Shown here piece after piece: positions 3 to 13,961 of a DNA stretch of 45,548 nt; positions within the stretch are counted from its first letter, which is position 1, and the number at the start of each line of letters is the position of its first letter. This DNA is from Pseudomonadota bacterium (GTDB taxonomy: Bacteria > Pseudomonadota > Gammaproteobacteria > Burkholderiales > Thiobacillaceae). Location: NCBI GenBank assembly GCA_021849595.1, contig JAJZSR010000002.1, positions 1 to 45,548 of the forward strand, in the 5' to 3' direction. Both the position numbers and the translations under genes were made by a program. The notes beneath the pieces were generated by a model. That model was not told the origin of the DNA and ran no database searches. It saw only the letters and a program-made list of their open reading frames with translations.

Positions 3-476
3 ATGACCAACATCCTCAAGGACGTCTGGGAAGACCGGCGCCGGGGCGCCTGCTGGCTGCCGCGCGACGTCTTCCTGGCCCAGGGCTGTGATCTGAGCCG
101 GCTGGAACCGGGACGCGACAACCCGGGCTTCGCCCAGGGCATCGACAAGCTGATCGCCGACGCCCGCGCCTGCCTGAAAGACGCCCTGGACTACACCCTG
201 CTGATTCCGCGCGAGGAAGAAGGCATACGCAATTTCTGCCTGTGGGCCGCGGGCATGGCCATGCTCACCTTGCGCAAGCTGCACCGGCACCTCGATTTCA
301 CCGAGGGGCGGCAGGTCAAGATCACCCGCCGCAGCGTTGCGGCGACCATACGCGTGAGCCGTTTCGCAGCGCAACGCGACTGGCTGCTGCGCCAGTTGTT
401 CTTGGCCCTGGGCATAGGCCTGCCGCGCAGCGAGCGGCGCGCCGCCTGCGTGCGGCCGGCGACACCCGATGCGTGA
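3..476 (+). CDS. Squalene synthase family protein, C-terminal fragment
   Basis: This is the 3' end of a squalene/phytoene synthase-type gene whose start lies off the window. The frame is open to base 1, so the ATG at 3 is an internal methionine following a glutamine codon. The family condenses two farnesyl diphosphates head to head, giving the C30 precursor used by the cyclase next door. The fragment opens with the second aspartate-rich motif (TNILKDVWED), the helix that binds diphosphate through magnesium. A later segment, IPREEEGIRNFCLWAAGMA, resembles one-step squalene synthases more than the HpnC/HpnD pair; that subfamily call is inference. It overlaps or abuts shc, which supports a role in the same pathway. 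Confidence 0.85.
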   Translation: MTNILKDVWEDRRRGACWLPRDVFLAQGCDLSRLEPGRDNPGFAQGIDKLIADARACLKDALDYTLLIPREEEGIRNFCLWAAGMAMLTLRKLHRHLDFTEGRQVKITRRSVAATIRVSRFAAQRDWLLRQLFLALGIGLPRSERRAACVRPATPDA

Positions 477-2397
477 AGCCATGTCCGAGCAACCGCTGGG
501 CATGCCGCTAACCACGGATGCGCCGCTGGATGCGGCCATCGAACAGGCGCGCGCCGCCTTGCTCGGGCGCCGGCATGCCGACGGCCACTGGTGCTTCGAA
601 TTCGAGGCCGATTGCACCATCCCGGCCGAATACATCCTCATGATGCATTTCATGGATGAGATCGACGGCGCGCTGCAGGCCAAGCTGGCCCGCTACCTCC
701 GCGAGCGCCAGAACGCCGATGGCGGCTGGCCCCTGTACTGGGGCGGGCAGACCGACGTCAGTTGCGCGGTGAAGGCCTACTACGCGCTCAAGCTGGCGGG
801 CGACGACCCCGCGGCGCCGCATATGCGCCGCGCCCGCCAGGCGATCCTGGAATGCGGCGGCGCGGAACGCTCCAACGTCTTCACGCGCATCACGCTCGCC
901 TACTTCGGCCAACTGCCCTGGCGCGCGGTGCCCTTCATACCCGCGGAAATCATGCTGCTGCCGCGCTGGTTTTTCTTCCACATTTATAAAGTATCTTCCT
1001 GGGCGCGCACGGTGATGGTGCCGTTGTTCGTGCTGTGCACGCTCAAGGCGCGCGCGGCCAACCCCAGCGGCATCGGCATCCGCGAACTGTTCCATGGGGA
1101 TCCTCAGCAGATCAAGGACTACATGCGCGCCAGCGGCGCGACACTTTGGGGCCGGATATTCCTGCTCCTGGACAGCCTGGGCCGCGGCATCGAACCGCTG
1201 ATTCCCGCCGCCCTGCGCCGGCGCGCCATCCGTGCGGCGGAGCAATGGTTCACCGCGCGCCTGAACGGCGAAGACGGCATCAACGGCATCTTCCCGGCCA
1301 TGGTCAACGCCTACCAGGCACTGGCGCTGCTGGGCTATGCGCCGGATCATCCTTATCGGCGCCAGGCCGGCGCGGCCCTGCGGCGCCTAGTGATAGAGCG
1401 CCCCGAGGACGCCTACTGCCAGCCCTGCGTCTCACCCACTTGGGACACGGCGCTGGCCATCCACGCTCTGCGCGAAAGCGAACCACCCAGCCCGGAAATG
1501 CACAGCGCGGTGGACTGGCTCATGCAGCGCCAGATCACGGAAGCGGCGGGTGACTGGCAGGTCAACCACCGCGGCGTGCGCGGCGGCGGCTGGGCCTTTC
1601 AATACCACAACGACTATTACCCCGACCTGGACGACACGGCCGCGGTGGCATGGGCCATCGCGCGCGTGGCCGGGCCCCGGCAGCGCGCCGCCCTGGAACG
1701 CGCCGCGGACTGGCTGGTGGCCATGCAATCAAAAAACGGCGGCTTCGGCGCCTACGATGCCGACAACACCCATCATTACCTCAACGAGATACCCTTCGCC
1801 GACCACAAAGCCCTGCTGGATCCGCCGACCGCCGACGTAACCGCCCGCGTGGTCGCTTTCCTGGCCCATTTGGACCGCCCGCAGGATCACCCGGCGCTGG
1901 AGCGCGCCGTGCAGTTTCTCCTGCGTGAGCAGGAAAGCAACGGCGCCTGGTTCGGGCGCTGGGGCACCAACTATGTCTATGGCACCTGGTCGGTGCTCGT
2001 GGCCCTCGAACTGCTGGGCGACGCCCAGCCGCGGGAGGCGACGGAGCGCGCCGCGGCCTGGCTGATGTCCGTGCAGCAGGCCGACGGCGGCTGGGGCGAA
2101 ACCAATGACAGCTATCTCGATCCTGCTCTCGCCGGCCGCGGCCAGCCTTCCACCGCCGCGCACACAGCCTGGGCCTGCCTGGGCCTGATGGCCGCCGGCC
2201 AGGGACATAACCCGGCGGTACGGCGCGGCATAAGCTGGCTGATGGAACATCAGGAGGACGGCTGCTGGCGCGATCCCTATTTCAACGCCCCGGGCTTTCC
2301 GCGCGTGTTCTATCTCATCTACCACGGCTATCGCTGCTATTTCCCGCTCTGGGCGCTGGCGCGCTACCGGCGCATGATGGAAACGGCCGGCGCGTGA
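469..2397 (+). CDS. shc: Squalene-hopene cyclase
   Basis: The enzyme cyclises squalene to hopene or hopanol at the cytoplasmic membrane and is the committed step of hopanoid synthesis. The protein has 642 residues, normal for the family. The catalytic acid motif DxDDTA appears as DLDDTA at residues 386-391 from this start, with Asp388 and Asp389 as the likely proton donors. Several QW-type repeats are visible, for example QNADGGWPLYWGG near the N-terminus and QSKNGGFGAYDADN and QQADGGWGETND toward the C-terminus. Two starts are possible: ATG 469, overlapping the upstream gene by 8 bases, or ATG 481. Neither has a strong ribosome site. The stop overlaps hpnG in a GTGA. Confidence 0.96.
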   Translation: MREAMSEQPLGMPLTTDAPLDAAIEQARAALLGRRHADGHWCFEFEADCTIPAEYILMMHFMDEIDGALQAKLARYLRERQNADGGWPLYWGGQTDVSCAVKAYYALKLAGDDPAAPHMRRARQAILECGGAERSNVFTRITLAYFGQLPWRAVPFIPAEIMLLPRWFFFHIYKVSSWARTVMVPLFVLCTLKARAANPSGIGIRELFHGDPQQIKDYMRASGATLWGRIFLLLDSLGRGIEPLIPAALRRRAIRAAEQWFTARLNGEDGINGIFPAMVNAYQALALLGYAPDHPYRRQAGAALRRLVIERPEDAYCQPCVSPTWDTALAIHALRESEPPSPEMHSAVDWLMQRQITEAAGDWQVNHRGVRGGGWAFQYHNDYYPDLDDTAAVAWAIARVAGPRQRAALERAADWLVAMQSKNGGFGAYDADNTHHYLNEIPFADHKALLDPPTADVTARVVAFLAHLDRPQDHPALERAVQFLLREQESNGAWFGRWGTNYVYGTWSVLVALELLGDAQPREATERAAAWLMSVQQADGGWGETNDSYLDPALAGRGQPSTAAHTAWACLGLMAAGQGHNPAVRRGISWLMEHQEDGCWRDPYFNAPGFPRVFYLIYHGYRCYFPLWALARYRRMMETAGA

Positions 2398-3095
2398 GAG
2401 TTGGCATGGTGGTGGCCCTGCAAAACGAAGCCCGGACCTTGCTGCCGCGCGGTGACTTGCTCCGGAGCGCAACCGTGGCAATCGGTACTTCCCTCGCCCT
2501 GCGCCTTTGCGGTATGGGGCCGGAAAAGGCGGCCGAAGCGGCGCGTGCCCTGCTGGCGGACGGAGCTACCGCCTTGGTGAGCTACGGCCTGGCGGGCGCG
2601 CTGGCACCCGAGTTGGCGCCGGGCACCCTGCTGCTGCCCGAGCGCGTTGCCTTCCGGGGAGAGGATCGTGTCGTGGACTTGTCCTGGAGGCAGCGCATCG
2701 AGCAGCGCCTCTCGCCCCGCCCCTCGGGGGGACTGCTGCTGACTTTACCCCAACCGCTCGCCACGGCCGCGGACAAGGCGCGGATGCACCGTGAAACGGG
2801 GGCCGACGCCGTCGATATGGAGAGCGGCGCGGTACTGGAAGTGGCCGCTGCGGCGGGCGTGCCCGGCCTGGTACTGCGTGCGGTGGTGGACGGTGCCGCC
2901 ACCTCTCTGCCGCAGGCGGCGGTGGCCGGCGTCGATGCCTACGGTCGGCCGCGTGCCGCTCCCCTGCTGCGCGCTTTGCTGCGCCGGCCCCGGGAAATCG
3001 GGGACTTGCTGCGCCTGGGTGGTGATCTGCGGCTGGCGCTGAACAGCCTCAAGCGCGCCTGGTCGCAACTGGGCACGGAAGGGCTGGCGACGTGA
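2394..3095 (+). CDS. hpnG: HpnG, adenosylhopane nucleosidase/phosphorylase
   Basis: This 233-residue protein belongs to the purine phosphorylase/nucleosidase superfamily. HpnG homologues remove adenine from adenosylhopane to give the ribosylhopane used to build bacteriohopanetetrol. The fold is indicated by the N-terminal VGMVVALQNEA strand, a central glycine-rich SYGLAGAL turn and the DAVDMESGAV segment around residues 138-147, where Glu143 is in the ribose-binding position of the nucleosidase family. The GTG start at 2394 is part of a GTGA overlap with the shc stop, and its own stop makes another GTGA with hpnA. HpnH, which makes its substrate, is not in this window. Confidence 0.9.
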   Translation: MRVGMVVALQNEARTLLPRGDLLRSATVAIGTSLALRLCGMGPEKAAEAARALLADGATALVSYGLAGALAPELAPGTLLLPERVAFRGEDRVVDLSWRQRIEQRLSPRPSGGLLLTLPQPLATAADKARMHRETGADAVDMESGAVLEVAAAAGVPGLVLRAVVDGAATSLPQAAVAGVDAYGRPRAAPLLRALLRRPREIGDLLRLGGDLRLALNSLKRAWSQLGTEGLAT

Positions 3096-4102
3096 AGGCC
3101 TTGCTCACCGGGGCCTCGGGATTCGTGGGCGCGGCGGTGCAGCGGCGGTTGCTCGCCCAAGGCGTCGAGTTGCGCGTTCTGGTGCGCCCGGGCACCGACA
3201 CGAGCGCCTGGCGGCAGACAGATATCGAAGTCGTGACGGGCGATCTCAGGGATGCCTCCAGTCTGCGGCGGGCCGTGTCCGGCTGCCAGGCCCTTTTCCA
3301 TGTGGCAGCGGACTATCGCCTGTGGGTGCCCGATCCCGCTGCCATGTATGCCAGCAACGTGGACGGCACCGTGGCGCTCATGCGCGCGGCCCTGGACGCG
3401 GGACTGGAGCGCATCGTCTATACCAGCAGCGTGGCGGTACTGGGGAAGCGCTCCGACGGCCAGCCGGCCGACGAGGAAATACCGTCCAGCCTGGCGGACA
3501 TGGTGGGGCATTACAAGCGCTCCAAGTTCCTGGCCGAGGAAGCGGTGCGCGCGCTGTGCCGCGAAGCGGGGCTGCCGGCGGTCATCGTCAATCCCTCCAC
3601 GCCCATAGGCCCGGGAGACATCAAGCCGACGCCCACCGGGCGCATGGTGCGCGACGCCGCCGCGGGCCGCATGCCGGCTTATGTGGACACCGGCCTGAAC
3701 ATCGTGCACGTGGACGATGTGGCCCAAGGCCACTGGCTGGCCTTCCAGCGCGGCAGGATCGGCGAGCGCTACATTCTGGGCGGCGAGAATCTGCCGCTCA
3801 AGATGATCCTCGGGCGCATCGCGCAAATCGCCGGCTGCGCCCCGCCGCGCCTGCGCCTGCCGCGTCGCGCGCTCTATCCCCTGGCGGCCGGCGCCGAAGC
3901 CTGGGCGCGTCTGCGCGGCGGGCTGCCGCGGGTGACCCTGGACGAGCTGCGCATGAGCGCCGGGAAAATGTATTTCAATTCCGTCAAGGCGGAGCGTGAA
4001 CTGGGCTACGTCCACCGTCCGGCGCAGGAGGCCTTTGTCGACGCGGTGCGCTGGTTTCAGTGCGGCGGCTCACTCAGCGGCGCGTTAGAGGGCCAGGCAT
4101 GA
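3092..4102 (+). CDS. hpnA: HpnA, hopanoid-associated NAD-dependent epimerase/dehydratase
   Basis: This is a 336-residue extended short-chain dehydrogenase. The NAD-binding motif TGASGFVG lies at residues 6-13 and the catalytic Tyr141-x-x-x-Lys145 in GHYKRSKFLAEE. The stretch VNPSTPIGPGDIKPTPTGRM is typical of the hopanoid-associated subfamily as I know it. Its exact substrate is not settled; a role in modifying a sugar or the ribose-derived side chain is inferred from the operon. The GTG start at 3092 overlaps the hpnG stop in a GTGA, and the stop overlaps hpnI in an ATGA. Confidence 0.9.
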   Translation: MKALLTGASGFVGAAVQRRLLAQGVELRVLVRPGTDTSAWRQTDIEVVTGDLRDASSLRRAVSGCQALFHVAADYRLWVPDPAAMYASNVDGTVALMRAALDAGLERIVYTSSVAVLGKRSDGQPADEEIPSSLADMVGHYKRSKFLAEEAVRALCREAGLPAVIVNPSTPIGPGDIKPTPTGRMVRDAAAGRMPAYVDTGLNIVHVDDVAQGHWLAFQRGRIGERYILGGENLPLKMILGRIAQIAGCAPPRLRLPRRALYPLAAGAEAWARLRGGLPRVTLDELRMSAGKMYFNSVKAERELGYVHRPAQEAFVDAVRWFQCGGSLSGALEGQA

Positions 4103-5235
4103 TTTCGGCAACCGAACTGTTGCCGCTGTTGATCTGGCCGTCCCTGGTGTACGAAAGCGCAGCCATCGCGGCGCTCTTGCGCTGGCCGCAGCGCCCTGTG
4201 AACGCGGCGTCTTACGCGCCCCCGGTCACTCTCCTCAAGCCCCTGCACGGCGAGGAGCCGGAACTCTACGAGAACCTGCACAGCTTCGTGTGCCAGCGCT
4301 ATCCCGCCTTCCAGATCGTCTTCGGCGTGCACCATGCGAGTGATCCCGCCGTGGCGGTGGTGCGCCGCTTGCAGGACGAATTCCCGCAACTGGACCTGCA
4401 TCTGGTGATCGACGAGCACAACATCGGAGCGAACCGCAAGGTGGGCAATCTGCACAACATGCTGAGCAGCGCCCGGCATGACATCCTGGTGTTGAGCGAT
4501 GCCGACGTGCGCGTGGCACCGGATTATCTGCGCGACGTGGTGGCTCCTTTGGCGGACTCCTCGGTGGGCGTGGTGACTTGTTTGTACCGCGGCGTGCCCG
4601 ACCGGGGCATAGGTTCCCGCCTGCTGGCCCAGCAGATCAACGAGGGCTTCGCGCCATCGGTCCTGGTGGCGCAACGGCTCGGGCCAAACACCTTCTGCGG
4701 CGGCGCGACCCTGGCCCTGCGGCGCGCCACGCTCGATGCCATAGGCGGTTTTGCCGCCCTGGCCGACCACTTGGCGGACGACTATCTGCTGGGAGCGCGC
4801 GCGCGCGCGCACGGATTGCGTACCGTGTTGTCGCACCACCTCGTGGACACGCGAGTACACGAGGACAGCCTCGCGAGTTGCTATCGCCACGCCCTGCGCT
4901 GGTCCCGCACCGTGCGCGCAGTGCAGCCGCTAGGGCACGCTTTTTCATTTTTGACTTACCCCCTGCCCTTGGCGCTGCTGGCAGCGCCGCTGGGCGGCTG
5001 GGGCCTGGCCACCCTCGGCCTGGCGCTGGTCCTGCGGGGCGCGCTGCATCTGGTGGCGCAGCGCGCCTGGAAAGGCGTGACGCGCGCAGCGGACTGGACT
5101 TTCCTGGCGGCGGATTTCCTGGGCCTCGCCATCTGGCTGCACGCGCTGTTGGGCAGACAGGTGCATTGGCGGCAGGAGCATTTCTCCGTCCGCGCAGATG
5201 GGCGGATGGAAAAAACACATGGAGCATTGCGATGA
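4099..5235 (+). CDS. hpnI: HpnI, hopanoid glycosyltransferase (GT2/GT21-like)
   Basis: HpnI-type enzymes add N-acetylglucosamine to bacteriohopanetetrol; HpnK then deacetylates the product. The protein resembles ceramide glucosyltransferases. The metal and nucleotide-binding DAD is at residues 134-136 (VLSDADVRV), followed by FCGGATLALRR, an acidic ADDYLLG segment and HALRW at 264-268. The last stands in the position of the family's QxxRW, with histidine replacing glutamine. There is an N-terminal hydrophobic anchor and C-terminal hydrophobic helices from about residue 285. I prefer ATG 4099 over an in-frame ATG at 4060, because it forms an ATGA overlap with hpnA and has GAGGG a few bases upstream. 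This gives 378 residues. Confidence 0.9.
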   Translation: MISATELLPLLIWPSLVYESAAIAALLRWPQRPVNAASYAPPVTLLKPLHGEEPELYENLHSFVCQRYPAFQIVFGVHHASDPAVAVVRRLQDEFPQLDLHLVIDEHNIGANRKVGNLHNMLSSARHDILVLSDADVRVAPDYLRDVVAPLADSSVGVVTCLYRGVPDRGIGSRLLAQQINEGFAPSVLVAQRLGPNTFCGGATLALRRATLDAIGGFAALADHLADDYLLGARARAHGLRTVLSHHLVDTRVHEDSLASCYRHALRWSRTVRAVQPLGHAFSFLTYPLPLALLAAPLGGWGLATLGLALVLRGALHLVAQRAWKGVTRAADWTFLAADFLGLAIWLHALLGRQVHWRQEHFSVRADGRMEKTHGALR

Positions 5236-6653
5236 AAACCCTCTTTTTGCAGGCACCTTCTTTCGACGGTTTTGACGGCGGGGCCGGCGCGCGTTATCAG
5301 GCCAAGCGCGAGATTCGTTCTTTCTGGTACCCCACCTGGCTCGCTCAGCCCGCAGCGCTGGTGCAGGACAGCCGTCTGGTGGACGCCCCCGCATCCGGCA
5401 TCGACCTGGCGGAAACGCTGCGCATCGCGCGCGACTACGAGCTATGCGTGATCCACACCAGCACGCCGTCCTTCCCTTCCGACGTGCGCGTGGCCGAGGC
5501 GCTCAAACAAGCCTGCCCAGGCCTGATGATAGGCATGGTGGGGGCCAAAGTCGCAGTGGAGCCCGAGCAATCCCTGCAGGCCTCACCGGCCATCGACTTC
5601 GTGGCGCGCGAGGAATTCGACTTCACGCTCAAGGAGGTGGCCGAAGGGCGGCCGCTGGCGGAAGTGGACGGCCTATGCTTTCGGGACCATGACGGTCGCA
5701 TCGTCCACACGCCTCCGCGCGCCATGATCGAGGACATGGACAGCCTGCCCTTCGTCTCCAAGGTCTATCAGCGCGATCTACGCGTGGAGGACTATTTCAT
5801 CGGCTATCTCAAGCACCCCTATGTGTCCCTCTACACGGGGCGCGGCTGCCATTCGCGCTGTACCTTCTGCCTGTGGCCGCAAACCGTGGGGGGGCATCGC
5901 TACCGCGTGCGCAGCCCGGAGCACGTGCTGGAAGAGGTGAAATATATTCAGCAGGTCTTCCCGCAGGTGCAGGAAATTTTCTTCGACGATGACACCTTCA
6001 CCGACAACCGTCCGCGCGCCGAAGCCATTGCACGCGGACTGGGTGCGCTGGGCGTGACCTGGTCGTGCAACGCCAAGGCCAACGTGCCCTACGACACGCT
6101 CAAAGTGCTGAAAGACAACGGCCTGCGCCTGCTGCTGGTGGGCTATGAGGCGGGCAACCAGCAGATCCTCAACAACATCAAGAAAGGACTGAAGGTGGAA
6201 AAGGCGCGCGAGTTCACGCGCAACTGCCACAAGCTAGGCATCGCCATCCACGGCACCTTCATCCTCGGTCTGCCGGGCGAAACCAAGGAAACCATCGAGG
6301 AAACCATACGCTTCGCCAAGGAGATCAACCCCCACACCATACAGGTCTCCATCGCCGCGCCTTATCCCGGTACCTATCTCTACGAACAGGCCCAAAAAGA
6401 GGGTTGGCTGAGCACGGAGAGCCAGGATCATCTAGTGAACGACCGCGGTATACAGATCAGCCCGCTGAGCTATCCGCATCTGGGCGCCACCGAAATCTTC
6501 GATTCCGTGGAAACCTTCTACAAGCGCTTTTATTTTCGCGCCGGCAAGATCGCCGAGATCACCGGCGAAATGCTGCGCAGCACGCAAATGATGAAGAGGC
6601 GCCTGCGCGAAGGAGTGGAATTCATGCGCTTCCTGCGCCAGCGCCACAATTGA
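5232..6653 (+). CDS. hpnJ: HpnJ, B12-binding-type radical SAM protein
   Basis: This is a 473-residue radical SAM enzyme. An N-terminal B12-binding-like region covers about residues 60-160. The iron-sulfur motif CxxxCxxC follows at Cys206, Cys210 and Cys213 (GRGCHSRCTFCLWP). The family is reported to be needed to convert glucosaminyl bacteriohopanetetrol to the cyclitol ether. The frame stays open to 4578, but the start is set at ATG 5232, which overlaps the hpnI stop in an ATGA and gives the expected N-terminus (MKTLFLQAPSFDGFDGG). Its stop overlaps hpnK in a TTGA. Confidence 0.92.
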   Translation: MKTLFLQAPSFDGFDGGAGARYQAKREIRSFWYPTWLAQPAALVQDSRLVDAPASGIDLAETLRIARDYELCVIHTSTPSFPSDVRVAEALKQACPGLMIGMVGAKVAVEPEQSLQASPAIDFVAREEFDFTLKEVAEGRPLAEVDGLCFRDHDGRIVHTPPRAMIEDMDSLPFVSKVYQRDLRVEDYFIGYLKHPYVSLYTGRGCHSRCTFCLWPQTVGGHRYRVRSPEHVLEEVKYIQQVFPQVQEIFFDDDTFTDNRPRAEAIARGLGALGVTWSCNAKANVPYDTLKVLKDNGLRLLLVGYEAGNQQILNNIKKGLKVEKAREFTRNCHKLGIAIHGTFILGLPGETKETIEETIRFAKEINPHTIQVSIAAPYPGTYLYEQAQKEGWLSTESQDHLVNDRGIQISPLSYPHLGATEIFDSVETFYKRFYFRAGKIAEITGEMLRSTQMMKRRLREGVEFMRFLRQRHN

Positions 6654-7543
6654 GCGCGGACGCAGCGGAACACACGCCCGCGAAGCGCCTGATCGTCACC
6701 GCCGATGATTTTGGCCTGGACGACGCGGTCAACGAGGCGGTGGAACGCGCCTACCGCGACGGCATACTGACCACCGCCAGCCTGATGGTCGGTGCGCCGG
6801 CCGCTGCCGATGCGGTGGCGCGCGCGCGGCGGCTGCCGGGCCTGCGCGTCGGTTTGCATGTCACCCTGGTGGACGGACGCTGCATGCTGCCGCCGCGCGA
6901 CCTCCCCGACCTGGTGACCCCTGGGGGCGAATTCCGTGCCGGCCAATTCGGCCCGGGCGTGCGCTTCTTCTTTCTGCCGCGCGTGCGGCGCCAGTTGGCA
7001 TCTGAAATCCGCGCCCAGTTCGACGCTTTTCGTGCCACGGGCCTGGCCCTGGATCATGTGAACGCCCACAAGCACATGCACGTGCATCCCACCGTTCTAG
7101 CCCTGATCCTGGACATCGGCCGCGAACACGGCCTGCGCTGCGTGCGGCTGCCCTACGAGCCGTGGCGGACCGCGCGGTGCCTGAAGGGAGGCGTCGCCGG
7201 ACGGCTTGCCTGGTCGGCTTTTCTCTTGCCCTGGCTGGCCCTGCTGCGCCGGCGCCTGCGCCGTGCCGGCATCTGCCACAACGATTACCTCTTCGGGCTC
7301 GCTCACAGCGGCGCTTGGGATGAGGCAAGGCTGCTGCAACTGCTGCGCTGTCTGCCCGACGGCGTGAGCGAGCTTTATTTCCATCCCGCGGCGGCGCGCA
7401 CGGCCGAGCTCATGCGTCGCATGCCCGGCTATCGCCATGAAGATGAACTGGCCGCGCTTTTGAGCCCAGCCGTCAGGAGGGTTCTGGACGACCCACGCTA
7501 CCGGAGGATGAGTTTCAGTGAACTCCATTTGGCAGCGGGTTGA
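6650..7543 (+). CDS. hpnK: HpnK, YdjC/ChbG-type deacetylase
   Basis: This 297-residue protein is a YdjC-type carbohydrate deacetylase, expected to remove the acetyl group from the N-acetylglucosaminyl hopanoid made by HpnI. The metal-binding aspartates are in TADDFG (Asp19, Asp20) and histidines are in NAHKHMHVHP (His140, 142, 144, 146). The open frame extends back to 6404 inside hpnJ, but conserved sequence begins only at about 6680. The best start is TTG 6650, which forms a TTGA overlap with the hpnJ stop and matches the coupling at neighbouring junctions. No clear ribosome site is visible, so expression probably depends on re-initiation after hpnJ. Confidence 0.86.
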   Translation: MSADAAEHTPAKRLIVTADDFGLDDAVNEAVERAYRDGILTTASLMVGAPAAADAVARARRLPGLRVGLHVTLVDGRCMLPPRDLPDLVTPGGEFRAGQFGPGVRFFFLPRVRRQLASEIRAQFDAFRATGLALDHVNAHKHMHVHPTVLALILDIGREHGLRCVRLPYEPWRTARCLKGGVAGRLAWSAFLLPWLALLRRRLRRAGICHNDYLFGLAHSGAWDEARLLQLLRCLPDGVSELYFHPAAARTAELMRRMPGYRHEDELAALLSPAVRRVLDDPRYRRMSFSELHLAAG

Positions 7544-10199
7544 CCTGCGCCTGCGATCGCTGGGGCACCGCTACATGAAGGGTCTGCTGTGGCTGGTGGA
7601 GCACTCGCACAGCCATGCCCGTTCCGTGTTCATGGTCGCCCTGGCCCTGCTGCTCGCGGCTTCGTATTACGGCGCCACGCACTTCAGCATGGACACCGAC
7701 ACCAGCGGTATCCTGTCGCGCGACCTGCCCTTCCAGCGTTTAGAGCATGACTACCACCGGGCGTTCCCGCAGACCCGGAACACCCTCGTGGTAGTCATCG
7801 ACGGCGATACTTCCGCGCTGGCCGCGAGCGCGCTGGATCGGCTGGAGGCGTGGGTGCGCGCGCATCCCGAGCAGTTCACCGGGGTTTATGCGCCGGGCGG
7901 AGGCGAATTCTTCCAGCGCAATGGCCTGTTGTTCCTCGACACGCCGCAGTTGCAGCAGCTCGCCGACCGCATCGTCGCCGCCCAGCCGCTGATCGCCAGC
8001 CTGGCGCGGGATGCCAGCCTGAAAGGGCTCATCAATCTCCTGGATACCGCGATACAGCAAAGGCTCAGCGGCGGGCAGCAGATGGCAGGGCTCGCGCCCC
8101 TGCTGGACCAAATGACCCAGGCCGTGCAGGCACAGAGGGAGGGACGCGCTTACGAGGTGCGTTGGGGGGCCTTGATGTCCGGGAGGAAGGCGTCCGCTTC
8201 TGAGCGCCAACGCTTTCTCATCCTCAATCCCGTGCTGGATCACAGCTCCCTGGAACCCGCGGCCGTTCCGATCCGGGCCCTGCGCGCCGCACTCGGCAAG
8301 CTGGGCCTGGATGCGGCTCACGGCGTCCATGTCGGCCTGACCGGCGACGCGCTGCTGGATTCCGAGCAAATCAAGACGGTCTCGGAGGGGGCGGGTTTGG
8401 CTCTAGGGCTTACCCTGGGACTGGAGTTGCTGCTTTTGGCCATCGCCCTGCGTTCGGCACGCCTGGTGGTCGCAGTGCTGGCGAGCCTGCTCACCGGCAT
8501 GGTTCTGACCACAGCCCTGGCGCTCGCCTTCATCGGGCCGTTCAACCTGCTTTCCGTGGCATTTGCCGTGCTCTTCATCGGACTGGGTGTGGATTTCGGC
8601 ATCCAGTTCTGCCTGCGCTACAAGGAGGAAACCTACAACGGCGCCCCGCACCCGGTCGCCCTGCGGCGCGTGGCGGCGGGGATGGGCGGCGCGTTGAGCC
8701 TGGCCGCGACGGCTGCGGCCATCAGCTTTTTTTCCTTCGTCCCTACCCGCTATGCCGGCATGGTGGACTTAGGCCTGATCTCGGGCATCAGCATGTTCGT
8801 CGCGCTGCTGACGACGCTCACCCTGCTGCCGGCGCTGCTGACCCTCTGGCCGCCGCGCTCGACGGACACGGCGCAGTCGGTACTGAATGTGAAAGGCGGG
8901 GTGGTGATGGAGCGCCATCCCATCCACCGCTATGGCCGCTGGATCGTCGGGGGTGCTCTGCTGCTGTGCCTGGGTGCGATTCCGCTGATCGCCCAGGTGC
9001 GCTTCGACTTCGATCCCCTGAACATGATCAACCCGCACTCCGAAGGGGTGCGGGTATTCCGCAAGCTGCTGCAGAATCAACAGACCTCGCCCTACCGGAT
9101 CGAAGTCGTCGCACCCGATCTGGCCTCGGCCAAACAAACCGCGGCCCGGCTCCAGCAGTTGCCCGAGGTCTCCCAAGCCCTGACCCTGGCAAGCTTCATC
9201 CCCTCCCAACAGGACGAAAAACTGGCCATCCTGCAGAATCTCCAGCTTCTGGTGCCGCCTTTCTCGCTGCACGTCGCGGCGGTGCCGCCTCTGCCCGGCC
9301 CCGACCTGCCTGCGGCCATGGCGCGCTTCGAATCCGGCCTGCACGACCTGGCGGCGCACGATACCGACGCCGCCGTGCGCCGCAGCGCGGCCTCGCTCTT
9401 GGCTGCATTGCAGGGCTTTCATGCTCGCTTCCAGGACAGCGGCCAAAGTCTGGCCCAACTGCAGCGGCGCATCATGGGCGGGCTTCCGGCCGAGCTGAAT
9501 CGCCTGGCGCTGGCCCTGACGGCGGCGCCGGTCGCGCTCGACAGCCTGCCCCATGATTTGCGCAGCCGCTATGTGGCTGCTGATGGGCAGGCCCGCGTGG
9601 AAGTTTTCCCGAAACATGACCTCAGCAAGGCCTCGGCCATGGAGCGATTCGTCTCGGCCGTGCGGGCGGTGGCGCCTCAGGCGGTGGGAGCGCCGGTCAT
9701 GCTGGTGGACGGCGGCCAGGCCGTGGCAGGCGCGTTCCGCGAAGCCAGCGCCATTGCTTTGACCCTTATCGTGTGCCTGCTGCTGACGGTGCTGCGCCGC
9801 TGGGTCGACATGCTGCTGATCATGGTGCCACTGTTGCTGGCGGCCGCCTTCACCGTGGCGATCATGACGCTGTCGGGGTTGCCCTTCAACCTGGGCAACA
9901 TCATCGTCTTACCCCTGCTCATCGGGCTGGGCGTGGCCTTCGCGATCTATGTGGTGGCGCGCTGGCGCCAGGGCGTGAGCATTTCTCATCTGTTGCAGAC
10001 CAGCACGCCGGCCGCGGTCTTGTTCAGCGGCCTCACGACCCTGAGCTCCTTCGGCAGCATGGCCATTTCTTCCGATCCGGGCATGGCCAGCCTGGGCAAA
10101 ACGTTGAGCCTGGCGTTGGTCATGGTGCTGCTGTGCATACTCGTGGTGCTGCCGGCCCTGCTGATGCTGATGACCCCATCGCCCAGGGAAGAAAAGTGA
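7518..10199 (+). CDS. hpnN: HpnN, RND/MMPL-family hopanoid transporter
   Basis: The 893-residue protein has the RND layout: a first helix near residues 35-55, a periplasmic loop, a five- to six-helix block at about 290-445, a second single helix near 472-490, a second loop and a final helix block at about 744-890. HpnN is known to move hopanoids from the inner toward the outer membrane. The repeated NLLSVAFAVLFIGLGVDFG and NLGNIIVLPLLIGLGVAFA segments are the matching TM4-type helices of the two halves. The GTG start at 7518 is chosen because GGAGG lies 10 bases upstream; it overlaps the end of hpnK by 26 bases. The stop overlaps hpnL in a GTGA. Confidence 0.93.
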   Translation: MNSIWQRVDLRLRSLGHRYMKGLLWLVEHSHSHARSVFMVALALLLAASYYGATHFSMDTDTSGILSRDLPFQRLEHDYHRAFPQTRNTLVVVIDGDTSALAASALDRLEAWVRAHPEQFTGVYAPGGGEFFQRNGLLFLDTPQLQQLADRIVAAQPLIASLARDASLKGLINLLDTAIQQRLSGGQQMAGLAPLLDQMTQAVQAQREGRAYEVRWGALMSGRKASASERQRFLILNPVLDHSSLEPAAVPIRALRAALGKLGLDAAHGVHVGLTGDALLDSEQIKTVSEGAGLALGLTLGLELLLLAIALRSARLVVAVLASLLTGMVLTTALALAFIGPFNLLSVAFAVLFIGLGVDFGIQFCLRYKEETYNGAPHPVALRRVAAGMGGALSLAATAAAISFFSFVPTRYAGMVDLGLISGISMFVALLTTLTLLPALLTLWPPRSTDTAQSVLNVKGGVVMERHPIHRYGRWIVGGALLLCLGAIPLIAQVRFDFDPLNMINPHSEGVRVFRKLLQNQQTSPYRIEVVAPDLASAKQTAARLQQLPEVSQALTLASFIPSQQDEKLAILQNLQLLVPPFSLHVAAVPPLPGPDLPAAMARFESGLHDLAAHDTDAAVRRSAASLLAALQGFHARFQDSGQSLAQLQRRIMGGLPAELNRLALALTAAPVALDSLPHDLRSRYVAADGQARVEVFPKHDLSKASAMERFVSAVRAVAPQAVGAPVMLVDGGQAVAGAFREASAIALTLIVCLLLTVLRRWVDMLLIMVPLLLAAAFTVAIMTLSGLPFNLGNIIVLPLLIGLGVAFAIYVVARWRQGVSISHLLQTSTPAAVLFSGLTTLSSFGSMAISSDPGMASLGKTLSLALVMVLLCILVVLPALLMLMTPSPREEK

Positions 10200-11230
10200 A
10201 ACGCATCGCCCATCTCGGCATGTATTTCGCCGCCCTGCTGGGCATGATTCTGGCCACGGTGCTGGTGATCAGAGAGGGTGCCGGTGACATCTTCGGCATC
10301 CTGCTGACGGCAGGTTGGAGCCTGTTCTGGCTCGTCCCTTTCCATCTCCTGCCCATCGGCCTGGATGTCATCAGTTGGCGGAGGCTGTTGCGCGATGAGC
10401 CCCGGGCCGGTTTCCCTTTCCTGCTGTGGGTCGCCGGGGTGCGCGAATCGGTCAACGGCCTGCTGCCCGTCGCCCGGGTCGGCGGCGAACTGGTCGGTGT
10501 GGGCCTGCTATCCCGGCGCGGCATCGCCGGAGACGTCGCGGGTGCCAGCATCGTGGTGGAGGTCACCCTGACCCTGGTGAGCCAGTTTCTTTTCACGCTG
10601 GCCGGCATCGCCATTCTGGTGCATTACGTGCACGACCAAGCGCTCATCGCCGACACGCTGGTGGGCCTGTTGATCACACTGCCGGCCATCCTGGCGTTCA
10701 TCATGCTGCAACACCACTGGGGACTGTTTCAGCTCCTGGAGCGCGTGATAAGGGCGATCCTGGGGCGCCACAGCCCATGGGCCGGATCGGGTGCCATGGT
10801 GCGCCTGGATGAGGCCGTGCGCCATATCTACCGGCAGCGAGCGACCCTGGGCATCGCCCTGTTCTGGCAACAGGCCGGCTTGTTCATGGGAGCCGTGGAA
10901 GTGTGGTTCACCTTCCATCTGCTGCACCATCCCATCTCTCCGGCGATGGCGGTGATGCTGGAAAGCCTGGGCCAGGCCTTGCGCAGCGCGACGTTCATCA
11001 TGCCGGCGGGGCTGGGTGTGCAGGAAGGCGGCTTCCTGTTGTTCGGCGCGGCGGCTGGCATTTCCCCCGAGGTGGCGCTGGCTTACTCGCTGGCGCGCAG
11101 ATTCCGGGAACTGGCCTTCGGGATCCCGTTCTTATTGGCGTGGCAAGGCGTGGAAGGGCATAATCTGCATCGCCGCTGGCGCGCAAAAGGGGAGGGACGT
11201 GATGCCCTCCCGGGAAGGGGAAAATCATGA
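10196..11230 (+). CDS. hpnL: HpnL, hopanoid-associated integral membrane protein
   Basis: A 344-residue polytopic membrane protein with roughly seven or eight hydrophobic helices, related to the lysylphosphatidylglycerol synthase membrane domain (UPF0104-like). The conserved segment [17 protein letters not shown] near residues 266-282 is typical. HpnL proteins are repeatedly found in hopanoid clusters, but their biochemical role is not established; lipid flipping or transfer is a possible guess. The frame is open back to 9773 within hpnN, but GTG 10196 is preferred because it overlaps the hpnN stop in a GTGA and follows AGGGAAG. The stop overlaps the next gene in an ATGA. Confidence 0.85.
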
Positions 11231-12078
11231 CCGCAACAGCATTGCGCATAGGCTCGACTCAGCACAGAGACCTGTTCTGCGGTTTTTTTTCCGATACCCA
11301 CATACAGTTCGATGCGCGCGCCGTCGCCTGGCTGGCGTTGGACGAGGATGCCTACCAGCGTCTGGTGCGCCTGCCTTTCTGGGGCGAAGCCGTGGCCACG
11401 GAGAGCGCCACGGCGGGCAGGGTGCAGGCGGCCGCCATGGCCGAAGCCGGCCCTGTGGTGCGGGCCGCCATCGCGATGAATGGCGAGGAAGAACAACGCC
11501 ATGCCATTTTGTTGCAGAGCCTGGTGCAGCAGCATTACGGCATCGAGTTGCCGCCGCTGCCATCGGCGCCGACGCTCAAGGATCCCCACTGGGAATTTTT
11601 CTACATGGGCTATGGCGAGTGCCTGGATTCATTTTTTGCCTTCGGCCTGTTTGCGGTGGCGCGCGACTCGGGATTTTTTCCGCCCGCACTGGTAGAGATA
11701 TTCGAACCCGTCATGCAGGAAGAGGCGCGCCATATCATCTTTTTCATGAAGTGGCTGGCCTGGCACCGCGCGCGCCTGCCCTGGTGGCAACGCCCCTGGC
11801 TGCAATTGCAAATACTTTGGATCATCCTGCTGCAGGCCTGGAGCCGCATCCAGACGGCACGCGGCCTGGGCAATCAGGAAGGGGATAACTTTACCCTGAC
11901 GGGGCACAAGGAAATCAACGCCGACGTCACCCTGCGCTCGCTACTGGAACGCTGCCTGCATGAAAACGATGTGCGCTTCAGCCGCTATGATGCGCGCCTG
12001 CTGCGGCCCGGGCTTGCTCCCGCCGCCGCCCGGCTGCTGCTGAGAGTCCTGCCCAAAGGCAAGGAAGCGACGGCGTGA
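11227..12078 (+). CDS. Ferritin-like diiron protein in the hopanoid operon
   Basis: I do not know a named function for this 283-residue protein. The sequence has the paired E...ExxH arrangement of carboxylate-bridged diiron four-helix proteins: Glu54 or Glu59, then Glu89-x-x-His92 (EEEQRH), then Glu131 (MGYGECLDS), then Glu166-x-x-His169 (EEARH). A hydrophobic, tryptophan-rich helix follows at about residues 180-205 ([18 protein letters not shown]), suggesting membrane association. It sits mid-operon, starting in an ATGA overlap with hpnL and ending next to hpnM, so a role in hopanoid chemistry or transport is likely. An oxidative modification such as hydroxylation or desaturation is inference. 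Iron storage seems unlikely given the context and the single-gene coupling. Confidence 0.75.
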
Positions 12079-12119
12079 AGCATACGATGCGCCGCGCGCG
12101 CGCCAAGGAGAACACGACC

Positions 12120-12770
12120 ATGAAAAAACTGCCGCTGATTTTTTTGCTGCTCGGAGGATTGCCCCTCGCCTGGACACCCGCCGTCGCCTCGGCAGAACCC
12201 GCCCCCCCGCCGCCGAGCGCGGCAACGGCCGCCGCCGCACCCCGACAGGTCATTGAGCAGCTCGACAACGCCTTGCTCACGGCCATGAAAGAGGCGAAAA
12301 AACTCGGCTACGCCGGGCGCTATCGCAGCCTGGCGCCTGCGATCGAGCGCGTCTACGACTTTCCCGGCATCGCGGCCCTGGTGCTGGGCAGCCATTGGGC
12401 CAAGCTCAGCCCTGCCCAGCAGCGGGAGTTCATCGCCACGTTGCGCGATTACACCATAGCCACCTACGCCGCGCGTTTCGACGGCTATGCCGGCGAGCGC
12501 TTCGCCATCAAATCCGTCCAGCCTCTGCCCCCCAGCCGGGTCGTGGTCTCCAGCACTCTCACCGAAACCGATGGCAAGGTGCACACCCTCGACTATCTGC
12601 TGCAGCCCGTAGGCGGCGAATGGCGCGTCATCAACGTGGTCGCCGATGGCGTGAGCGACCTTGCCCTGAAACAGGCGGAGTTCACCCATCTTCTGGAGCT
12701 CAAGGGCTTTCCGGGCCTGATCGCCGGCTTGAAGGGCTACATCGCGCGCATGGCGCAGAGCGGGGTATGA
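12120..12770 (+). CDS. hpnM: HpnM, periplasmic MlaC/Ttg2D-like lipid carrier
   Basis: A 216-residue secreted protein of the toluene-tolerance Ttg2D/MlaC family, whose members carry lipids across the periplasm. The signal peptide is clear: MKK, a hydrophobic core (LPLIFLLLGGLPLAW) and an AVASAEP cleavage region. It is followed by a proline- and alanine-rich linker and the domain from about residue 40. The start is ATG 12120 with AAGGAG nine bases upstream. An in-frame GTG at 12075, overlapping the previous stop, would add 15 residues before the signal peptide and is less likely. The stop overlaps mlaA in an ATGA. Confidence 0.88.
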   Translation: MKKLPLIFLLLGGLPLAWTPAVASAEPAPPPPSAATAAAAPRQVIEQLDNALLTAMKEAKKLGYAGRYRSLAPAIERVYDFPGIAALVLGSHWAKLSPAQQREFIATLRDYTIATYAARFDGYAGERFAIKSVQPLPPSRVVVSSTLTETDGKVHTLDYLLQPVGGEWRVINVVADGVSDLALKQAEFTHLLELKGFPGLIAGLKGYIARMAQSGV

Positions 12771-13576
12771 CCGTGGCGCATCGCAGGAATTGGACGACGA
12801 TACTAGCGCTGGCGGCGACACTGGCCTCCCTGCAGGGTTGCGCGACGACCGGCGGCGAAACCAAACCCGGCCTGCATTCTGCCGATGCGGAAATCTCCGA
12901 CCCTCTGGAGCCCATGAACCGGAAGATATTCAACTTCAACATGGGGCTCTATGATTACGTGCTCGAACCCGTGGCCAGAGGCTACGAGAAGGTAACGCCT
13001 CAATTCCTCCGCACCAGGGTCGCCAATTTTTTCGCCAACGCCGGCTACCCTTACATCATACTCAACGACTTCCTGCAACTGCGGGTGCATCAGGGGCTGT
13101 CCGACCTGAGCCGCTTCGTGGGCAACACCATATTCGGCGTCGGCGGGCTCTTCAACTTCGCCGATCGCTTCGACCTGCCGCCGCATGAGAACAACCTGGG
13201 GGTGACCTTGGGCGTATGGGGCGTGCCGCAGGGTCCTTACTTGGTATTGCCTTTCTTCGGACCCTCCTCGCTGCGCAGCCTGCCCGGCGTTCCCGCAGAA
13301 ATCCTGGCCAGCCCGTTTTATTACGTGAACAGCACGCCGGCCCAGTGGAGCATCACCACCTTGGGCGTGGTGAACGAAGGCTACACCGAACGCGGCGCCG
13401 TAAAGGTGGTGAAGGAATCCGTGTTCCCCTATTACTTCGCCCGCAGCGCCTGGCTCCAGCATCAGGAGTATTTGATCCGCGGACGGGCCTTGAGCTCGCG
13501 CGAGCTTCTGGAGCAGCTTGGCCCTGAGCAGCCGGAGGAGTCGTCACCGGCAGGCGAAAAACCGGCCACCCATTGA
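12767..13576 (+). CDS. mlaA: MlaA/VacJ-family outer-membrane lipoprotein
   Basis: MlaA proteins sit in the inner leaflet of the outer membrane and pass phospholipids to periplasmic MlaC. This 269-residue protein has a lipoprotein signal ending in a lipobox LQGC, with Cys25 as the lipidated residue. The family core begins with DPLEPMNRKIFNFN and includes the GVTLGVWGVPQGPYLVLP segment. It starts in an ATGA overlap with hpnM, so carrier and receptor are made as a pair. No mlaFEDB genes are nearby. The link to the hopanoid operon suggests it handles hopanoids or hopanoid-rich lipid, which is inference. Confidence 0.93.
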   Translation: MTVAHRRNWTTILALAATLASLQGCATTGGETKPGLHSADAEISDPLEPMNRKIFNFNMGLYDYVLEPVARGYEKVTPQFLRTRVANFFANAGYPYIILNDFLQLRVHQGLSDLSRFVGNTIFGVGGLFNFADRFDLPPHENNLGVTLGVWGVPQGPYLVLPFFGPSSLRSLPGVPAEILASPFYYVNSTPAQWSITTLGVVNEGYTERGAVKVVKESVFPYYFARSAWLQHQEYLIRGRALSSRELLEQLGPEQPEESSPAGEKPATH

Positions 13577-13577
13577 A

Positions 13578-13606
13578 GTGTCGGTGTGACACCGCCGCGG
13601 CGGTTT
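13578..13606 (+). terminator. Possible weak terminator after mlaA
   Basis: Right after the mlaA stop there is a short hairpin (GTGTC, five-base loop, GACAC at 13578-13592). A fully palindromic CCGCCGCGGCGG follows at 13592-13603 with three T residues. The T-tract is too short for a confident intrinsic terminator, but this is the natural end of the hopanoid operon before a tRNA on the other strand. Confidence 0.35.
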
Positions 13607-13613
13607 CTGAAGA

Positions 13614-13687
13614 TGGAGCGGGTGAAGGGAATCGAACCCTCGTATGCAGCTTGGGAAGCTGCCGTTCTACCATTGAACTACACCCGC
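13614..13687 (-). tRNA. tRNA-Gly (anticodon CCC)
   Basis: Read on the minus strand, the 74-base sequence folds as a full cloverleaf. The acceptor is GCGGGTG paired with CACCCGC, followed by discriminator T and an encoded CCA. The anticodon stem GCAGC/GCTGC encloses the loop TTCCCAA, giving anticodon CCC, which reads GGG glycine codons. The T-loop GGTTCGATTCC is standard. It stands alone between two plus-strand operons. Confidence 0.96.
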
Positions 13688-13705
13688 ATGGTAGACTTTG
13701 TACAA

Positions 13706-13723
13706 GCCTTGCGCTCGCAAGGC
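13706..13723. repeat. Perfect 7-bp hairpin between tRNA-Gly and thiS
   Basis: GCCTTGC and GCAAGGC flank a GCTC loop in the 64-base gap between the divergent tRNA-Gly and thiS genes. There is no T-run on either side, so it does not look like a terminator. It may be a regulator site or a structured leader of thiS. No conserved thiamine riboswitch core (CTGAGA, ACCTGAT) is present. Confidence 0.45.
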
Positions 13724-13751
13724 AGGCATCTTACTGGAATTCCCCGCTCCC

Positions 13752-13961
13752 ATGAAGTCATTGAGCCTGACCATCAACGGCGAGCCCCGGTCTTTTCCCG
13801 TGCCCTTGACGGTGGCCGGCCTGGTGGAGGCCATGGAACTTGCCGGCAAGCGTGTCGCCATAGAACGCAACGGGGAGATCGTGCCGCGCAGCACCTACCC
13901 GGACACCTTGCTCGCCGACGGTGACAAACTGGAAGTCGTCGTCGCGGTGGGCGGCGGCTGA
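13752..13961 (+). CDS. thiS: ThiS, sulfur-carrier protein for thiazole synthesis
   Basis: A 69-residue ubiquitin-like sulfur carrier. Its C-terminus (VVVAVGGG) ends in the Gly-Gly that is adenylated and converted to a thiocarboxylate, the sulfur donor to ThiG in thiamine biosynthesis. The start at ATG 13752 gives the normal N-terminus [11 protein letters not shown]; an upstream frame extension lacks conservation. thiG follows 63 bases downstream on the same strand. Confidence 0.93.

What the first reader, a model, noticed from the sequence alone, without database searches (positions are those of the whole stretch)
12120..13576. HpnM-MlaA pair suggests a dedicated hopanoid route across the envelope
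An RND exporter (HpnN), a periplasmic MlaC-like carrier (HpnM) and an outer-membrane MlaA lipoprotein are encoded in one operon, and hpnM-mlaA share an ATGA overlap. The usual inner-membrane partners MlaFEDB are absent here. This allows a complete inner-to-outer-membrane chain, HpnN to HpnM to MlaA, distinct from retrograde phospholipid Mla transport. The direction and cargo are inference.
Basis: partly seen in the sequence, partly recalled or inferred. Interest (0 to 1): 0.62.

Follow-up and report, generated by a model that had tools for sequence, protein, structure and literature searches.

The report
Hopanoid-operon MlaA outer-membrane lipoprotein
In this bacterium, and in many relatives in two phyla, the genes for making sterol-like hopanoid lipids come with their own version of an outer-membrane lipid-transfer protein (MlaA) next to a periplasmic carrier (HpnM), which points to a separate delivery line for these lipids alongside the ordinary phospholipid one.

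Summary
In detail: hpnM (12120-12770) and mlaA (12767-13576) overlap by ATGA at the end of a shc-hpnG-A-I-J-K-N-L operon. But that mla operon carries a TolC-like gene between mlaD and mlaC. Five of the six order genomes with this TolC have no MlaA at all, and the sixth is this one; at class level 38 of 44 have none. So its Mla system probably does not need this MlaA. Hopanoid-linked MlaA (after hpnM or before shc) from Acidithiobacillia, beta-, gamma- and zetaproteobacteria and Nitrospirota form one strongly supported clade apart from Mla-linked MlaA; Burkholderia-type hpnN-mlaA pairs arose separately. A second MlaA in a genome goes with hpnN (8 of 9). Against exclusivity: in 17 further genomes the hopanoid-linked MlaA is the only MlaA beside an mla operon without TolC. 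Best reading: an MlaA subfamily serving an HpnN-HpnM-MlaA hopanoid route; cargo and direction are inferred. A VacJ lipoprotein needed for HpnN function in Burkholderia is in print, as unpublished data.

The parts
12120..12770 (+). hpnM: periplasmic MlaC-like carrier of the HpnM family
   Evidence: TIGR03481 233.7 bits, cut-off 160.1; AlphaFold model pLDDT 90.7, best PDB matches are MlaC/Ttg2D structures
12767..13576 (+). mlaA, hopanoid-linked type: predicted outer-membrane lipoprotein
   Evidence: PF04333 217.6 bits; lipobox with C25 and Ala at +2; profile matches 5nuo/8i8r MlaA at E 2.2e-48 and 2e-46; model pLDDT 68.2 matches 5nuo_B
12767..12770 (+). ATGA overlap of hpnM stop and mlaA start
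   Evidence: sequence; an ATG at the same -4 position is available in 12 of 41 adjacent hpnM-mlaA pairs
7518..10199 (+). hpnN: RND/MMPL inner-membrane hopanoid transporter
   Evidence: TIGR03480 1000.2 bits, cut-off 751.85; NF052374 739.3 below its cut-off of 1100
10196..11230 (+). hpnL-like integral membrane protein (LPG_synthase_TM)
   Evidence: PF03706 73.2 bits; the name HpnL is recalled
11227..12078 (+). diiron/ferritin-like protein of unknown function in the operon
   Evidence: no NCBIfam match; AurF PF11583 18.9 bits, below cut-off; conserved in Acidithiobacillus hopanoid operons
469..7543 (+). upstream hopanoid genes shc, hpnG, hpnA, hpnI, hpnJ, hpnK
   Evidence: NCBIfam TIGR01507, TIGR03468, TIGR03466, TIGR03472, TIGR03473 over cut-off; radical SAM at 5232-6653 (the name HpnJ is recalled)
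13614..13687 (-). tRNA-Gly (ccc), boundary of the operon
   Evidence: ARAGORN

Best explanation
The window encodes a trans-envelope hopanoid route: HpnN (RND pump, inner membrane) loads hopanoids onto the soluble MlaC-like carrier HpnM, which hands them to an outer-membrane lipoprotein of a hopanoid-specific MlaA subfamily; that protein passes them into the outer membrane. Shown here: the genes, their families, their overlap, the conserved linkage, the separate MlaA clade and the TolC-type Mla operon elsewhere in the genome. Inferred: the hand-over order, the cargo, export as the direction, and that MlaA's channel releases hopanoids into the outer leaflet. In this genome the MlaA is probably dedicated to hopanoids; in lineages with only this MlaA and no TolC it may also serve Mla.
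For: Linkage: 53 of 80 HpnM loci hold a same-strand MlaA, 41 directly after hpnM and 12 in the order hpnM-hpnN-mlaA-shc. Copy number: of 120 order genomes 9 have two MlaA matches and 8 of those are among the 12 hpnN carriers (Fisher 5e-9, not corrected for kinship; one second match, G025, is a fragment). Ten of the 12 carriers have an MlaA beside hpnM, hpnN or shc. Phylogeny: 42 hpnM- or shc-linked MlaA plus 5 unlinked paralogues form one clade, SH-aLRT 99, of 99 rows; 36 versus 38 rows at 100/99 in the careful tree. TolC: this genome's mla operon is mlaF-E-D-TolC-C-B; 5 of 6 TolC genomes of the order lack MlaA while 113 of 114 others have one; in the class 38 of 44 TolC genomes lack MlaA. The near relative G485 repeats the pattern (TolC in mla, single hopanoid-linked MlaA), and in G486, which has a related hopanoid operon, the same slot of the mla operon holds a second MlaA. 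Literature: insertion in a VacJ lipoprotein of the B. ubonensis hpnN operon lowers meropenem resistance and the protein is said to be required for pump function (PMC7157819, passage, unpublished data there); [quoted passage not shown]
Against: The window's MlaA is the only MlaA in the assembly, which is 91% complete. In 17 genomes with a single, hopanoid-linked MlaA the mla operon has no TolC, and G079 is likewise, so a shared role cannot be excluded. 27 of 80 HpnM loci have no MlaA nearby (seven of them have under 5 kb of downstream sequence), and the methanotrophs and deltaproteobacteria examined have one MlaA away from hpnM. TolC and MlaA are not strictly exclusive: G191, G205, G229, G294, G477 have both without hopanoid linkage. 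Direction and cargo rest on HpnN alone.
Confidence: 0.62

Rival explanations
1. The hopanoid-linked MlaA is simply the cell's Mla outer-membrane component that happens to be encoded in the hopanoid operon; HpnM alone, or HpnN alone, handles hopanoids.
For: Only MlaA in the genome with mlaFEDB elsewhere; 17 further genomes with the same single copy and no TolC in the mla operon.
Against: The genome's mla operon has TolC, and TolC genomes otherwise mostly lack MlaA; two-copy genomes keep a canonical MlaA besides the hopanoid one; a separate clade.
Confidence: 0.17
2. HpnM-MlaA is a retrieval arm: MlaA extracts hopanoids (or phospholipids displaced by hopanoids) from the outer leaflet and HpnM returns them to the inner membrane, opposite to HpnN.
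For: Canonical MlaA-MlaC is held to work in the retrograde direction (PMC10665443 abstract); two Nitrospirota genomes place mlaE-F-D-C straight after shc-hpnG (L334, L336), an inner-membrane partner that could take hopanoids back.
Against: In the window no mlaFED is linked to the pair; HpnN is the only linked inner-membrane partner, and in 12 loci it lies between hpnM and mlaA.
Confidence: 0.15
3. The operon's MlaA is a general outer-membrane stabiliser co-expressed with hopanoids, with no direct transfer from HpnM.
For: Linkage alone cannot show contact; no complex was modelled.
Against: Conserved direct adjacency and overlap with hpnM, and PDB 8i8x shows that MlaA and an MlaC can form one complex (title only).
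Confidence: 0.06

Closest known systems
Mla system, MlaA-MlaC-MlaFEDB
   Same: MlaA family lipoprotein and MlaC-fold carrier acting between the two membranes
   Different: Linked inner-membrane partner is the RND protein HpnN, not the MlaFEDB ABC complex; this MlaA lies in another clade than Mla-linked MlaA
Burkholderia hpnN operon with a VacJ family lipoprotein (called HpnM in PMC7157819)
   Same: hpnN with an MlaA/VacJ lipoprotein, reported there as required for efflux pump function, unpublished data
   Different: There the lipoprotein follows hpnN directly and is itself named HpnM; here HpnM is the MlaC-like protein. Burkholderia-type hpnN-linked MlaA (G055, G116, G029) fall outside the hpnM-linked clade; that these three genomes are Burkholderia-like is inferred from the gene order
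HpnN/HpnM hopanoid transport genes
   Same: Both families are over their cut-offs
   Different: PMC12583986 passages call HpnM's function elusive and name no outer-membrane partner (no occurrence of MlaA in its text)
BstA-BstB-BstC sterol transport of Methylococcus
   Same: RND protein related to HpnN plus a periplasmic protein and a further lipid-binding protein encoded with the lipid's biosynthesis genes (PMC10942540 passages)
   Different: BstB and BstC belong to other families (phosphonate-binding; T-component), so it is an analogue, not a relative, beyond the RND part
Mla of Veillonella with mlaEFD followed by tolC and tamB
   Same: TolC homologue beside mla genes and no MlaA (PMC10665443 passages)
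   Different: There MlaC is missing and MlaD is long; in this genome MlaD is 160 aa and MlaC is present

Membership tests
MlaA (PF04333) | domain match over gathering score | tested here: met
   217.6 bits, cut-off 25
MlaA equivalog NF011672 | score over the equivalog cut-off | tested here: not met
   108.1 bits against 375; this model is named for phospholipid-binding MlaA
MlaA (PF04333) | lipoprotein signal and outer-membrane location | tested here: inconclusive
   lipobox and Ala at +2 present, lipobox found in 40 of 41 adjacent homologues; location itself not testable
HpnM (TIGR03481) | score over cut-off and location beside hopanoid genes | tested here: met
   233.7 bits, cut-off 160.1; operon
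HpnN (TIGR03480) | score over cut-off | tested here: met
   1000.2 bits, cut-off 751.85; the narrower NF052374 not met
Canonical Mla system | MlaA working with MlaC and MlaFEDB; in the clade of Mla-linked MlaA | tested here: not met
   not with the 11 Mla-linked MlaA; mlaFEDB on another contig with TolC. Physical partnership not testable
Hopanoid-linked MlaA clade | groups with hpnM/shc-linked MlaA | tested here: met
   99/93; SH-aLRT 99; 100/99
Hopanoid transporter chain | binds and moves hopanoids to the outer membrane | not testable with these tools
   needs lipid binding and membrane fractionation

The most novel reading that the evidence does not exclude
MlaA split long ago into two subfamilies, one for phospholipid asymmetry and one for hopanoids. 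The second, with HpnM and HpnN, is a general trans-envelope delivery line that places hopanoids in the outer leaflet of the outer membrane across Pseudomonadota and Nitrospirota, and it persists where Mla has swapped its own MlaA for a TolC-like protein.
Probability: 0.4. Interest if true: 0.76.

Novelty: new variant of a known kind. Interest (0 to 1): 0.6.

Why it matters
How hopanoids, the source of abundant molecular fossils, get from the inner to the outer membrane is known only for the first step, HpnN. A conserved carrier plus outer-membrane partner would complete the path, give a sequence marker for it, and make the question testable with two gene deletions. It would also show that MlaA and MlaC are not phospholipid-only parts, and it warns that MlaA counts in genomes mix two subfamilies. 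The TolC replacement of MlaA inside mla operons is a separate lead on how Mla reaches the outer membrane.

Tried and rejected
Rejected: chance neighbourhood (53 of 80 loci). Rejected: one common origin for all hopanoid-linked MlaA including the hpnN-linked ones (AU p 0.014 for the 10 rows; the long branch of G029's copy makes this weaker). Tried: a difference of residues between the two MlaA groups, 47 rows against 52; several positions that are charged in most other MlaA are neutral in most of the hopanoid group (for example 178: D in 47 of 52 versus S/A, E in 6 of 47; 94: D in 40 of 52 versus Y/M; 193: R in 27 of 52 versus Q/T/S), but I could not place them on a structure, so nothing is built on it. 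Tried: the AlphaFold model of MlaA is only fair (pLDDT 68), so no pocket or channel comparison was made; no complex of HpnM with MlaA could be modelled. Tried: promoter and terminator scan of 11900-13760 gave nothing above shuffles.

Literature: searches for hopanoid with HpnM, VacJ, MlaA, MlaC, toluene tolerance and HpnN gave no paper in the listings or in the passages I read that describes an hpnM-mlaA pair or a hopanoid MlaA subfamily; PMC7157819 is the nearest. Only open-licence PMC papers were searched. One search (MlaD, TolC, MlaA, MlaC, operon) listed nine papers, of which I read passages of one (PMC10665443). Passages were also read of PMC10853474, PMC12013268, PMC12583986, PMC8886135, PMC11131202 and PMC10942540.

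Full report
What is there. The window holds a hopanoid operon: shc (469-2397), hpnG, hpnA, hpnI, hpnJ, hpnK, hpnN (7518-10199), an LPG_synthase_TM protein (hpnL), a diiron-like protein (11227-12078), hpnM (12120-12770) and mlaA (12767-13576). The hpnM stop and mlaA start share ATGA at 12767-12770. HpnM passes TIGR03481 (233.7 bits, cut-off 160.1) and is far below the MlaC equivalog; MlaA passes PF04333 (217.6 bits, cut-off 25) but is far below the MlaA equivalog NF011672 (108.1 of 375). The HpnM model (pLDDT 90.7) matches MlaC/Ttg2D structures; the MlaA model is fair (68.2) and matches MlaA of 5nuo and 8i8x. A tRNA-Gly on the other strand follows at 13614-13687.

The rest of the genome. The assembly (2.63 Mb, 229 contigs, 91% complete) has one MlaA, the window's, and two MlaC-family proteins, HpnM and a canonical MlaC on contig C1. 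C1 carries mlaF, mlaE, mlaD, a TolC-like outer-membrane efflux protein, mlaC, mlaB.

Why the Mla operon probably does not need this MlaA. A profile of the mla-operon TolC (alignment A1, 4 rows) finds it in 6 of 120 genomes of the order: G000, G007, G033, G077, G103, G118. MlaA is absent from 6 of the same 120: G007, G033, G077, G087, G103, G118; G087 also lacks any MlaC-family match. Hence 5 of 6 TolC genomes have no MlaA, the exception being the window genome, and 113 of 114 genomes without TolC have one (Fisher 2e-7; genomes are related, so the number overstates the evidence). In the class, 44 of 370 genomes have the TolC; MlaC lies next to it in 43 of 44 and MlaA is missing from 38 of 44. 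The six with MlaA are the window genome, G191 (a second mla set with MlaA), and G205, G229, G294, G477 (MlaA with none of the searched hopanoid or mla genes near it). The near relative G485 (record of L134, HpnM 84% identical) repeats the pattern: TolC in mla and one MlaA, in the hopanoid operon. In G486, whose hopanoid operon is related, the slot between mlaD and mlaC holds a second MlaA (L333).

The association elsewhere. The scan of genome contigs with an HpnM profile found 422 relatives and kept the best 80, so the sample leans to near relatives. MlaA lies on the same strand in 53 of 80; in 41 directly after hpnM, in 12 (Nitrosospira, Nitrosovibrio and kin) in the order hpnM-hpnN-mlaA-shc-hpnG. 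The 27 without are methanotrophs, deltaproteobacteria, Nitrosomonas and others, some with short loci. In three order genomes (G014, G062, G104) the extra MlaA sits directly before shc instead. Of 120 order genomes 12 carry HpnN and 9 have two MlaA matches; 8 of the 9 are HpnN carriers (one of these second matches, in G025, is a fragment; without it 7 of 8). Ten of 12 carriers have an MlaA beside hpnM, hpnN or shc; G025 (fragmented) and G089 do not.

Phylogeny. In a first tree of 50 MlaA the 7 hpnM- or shc-linked rows form a clade (99/93); the 3 hpnN-linked rows (G029, G055, G116) fall elsewhere, and forcing all 10 together is rejected (AU p 0.014). In a tree of 99 rows, which used 35 of the 53 linked MlaA of the scan plus 7 from the order and window, all 42 hpnM- or shc-linked rows fall in one clade (SH-aLRT 99) with 5 unlinked paralogues from Nitrosospira-type and Mariprofundus genomes; the 11 Mla-linked rows and the 3 hpnN-linked rows lie outside. 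A careful tree of 74 rows (25 of the 99 left out as near copies, long branches or to save time, among them G029's hpnN-linked copy) gives the split 36 against 38 rows at 100/99, with the bootstrap not fully settled. The clade spans Acidithiobacillia, beta-, gamma- and zetaproteobacteria and Nitrospirota. The four Nitrospirota genomes have a hopanoid-linked MlaA inside it and further copies outside. Trees are unrooted, so which type is older is open; transfer between lineages is likely in places (the window's copy sits near Acidithiobacillus).

Evidence against exclusive dedication. In the 50 genomes examined for MlaA number (50 of the 80, chosen by me), 19 have a single MlaA that is hopanoid-linked. 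For 18 of them I read the canonical mla region (G489 is the same genome as G056 by its coordinates): one (G485) has TolC, 17 do not. The nineteenth, G495, has no second MlaC. There the hopanoid-linked MlaA may serve Mla as well, or Mla may run without MlaA. A TolC elsewhere in those genomes was not searched for.

Mechanism. From the anatomy, HpnN would move hopanoids out of the inner membrane, HpnM carry them across the periplasm, and MlaA pass them into the outer membrane. HpnN's role is from the literature (PMC12583986 passage citing Doughty 2011 and Kumar 2017). The best outside support for an MlaA partner is PMC7157819 (passage): in Burkholderia ubonensis a transposon in a VacJ family lipoprotein in the hpnN operon lowers meropenem resistance, and the authors state, as unpublished data, that the protein is likely in the outer membrane and required for pump function. 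They call it HpnM, a name that TIGR03481 gives to the MlaC-like protein; in my survey the hpnN-mlaA arrangement is phylogenetically separate. Direction is inferred: a retrieval role is a live rival, and two Nitrospirota loci with shc-hpnG-mlaE-F-D-C in a row (L334, L336) show that an MCE module can also be tied to hopanoids.

Verdict. It is a new variant of a known kind.

Noticed in passing
L007 2897-4255 (own genome contig C1); loci L117, L119, L124, L311: A TolC-like outer-membrane efflux gene sits between mlaD and mlaC; the profile finds it in 6 of 120 order genomes and beside mlaC in 43 of 44 TolC genomes of the class; 38 of those 44 have no MlaA, which suggests that TolC replaces MlaA in these Mla systems.
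   Followed up: partly
L334, L336 (and L335): In Nitrospirota genomes mlaE-mlaF-mlaD-mlaC follow shc-hpnG directly (in L335 my profiles show only mlaC after hpnG), so an MCE lipid transporter appears to be part of the hopanoid gene cluster.
   Followed up: partly
window 11227-12078: A diiron/ferritin-like protein without a family model over cut-off lies between hpnL and hpnM, overlaps hpnL by ATGA, and is conserved in the same place in Acidithiobacillus hopanoid operons.
   Followed up: no
L099, L107, L094: hpnN-mlaA pairs (Burkholderia-type order) recruited MlaA independently; in G116 the hpnN-linked copy is sister to the genome's own Mla-linked MlaA.
   Followed up: partly
L341, L342, L350, L348, L349: Nitrosospira-type and Mariprofundus genomes carry further MlaA copies of the hopanoid clade that are not beside the searched hopanoid genes.
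   Followed up: no
literature naming: The name HpnM is used for the MlaC-like protein in TIGR03481 but for a VacJ/MlaA lipoprotein in PMC7157819.
   Followed up: yes
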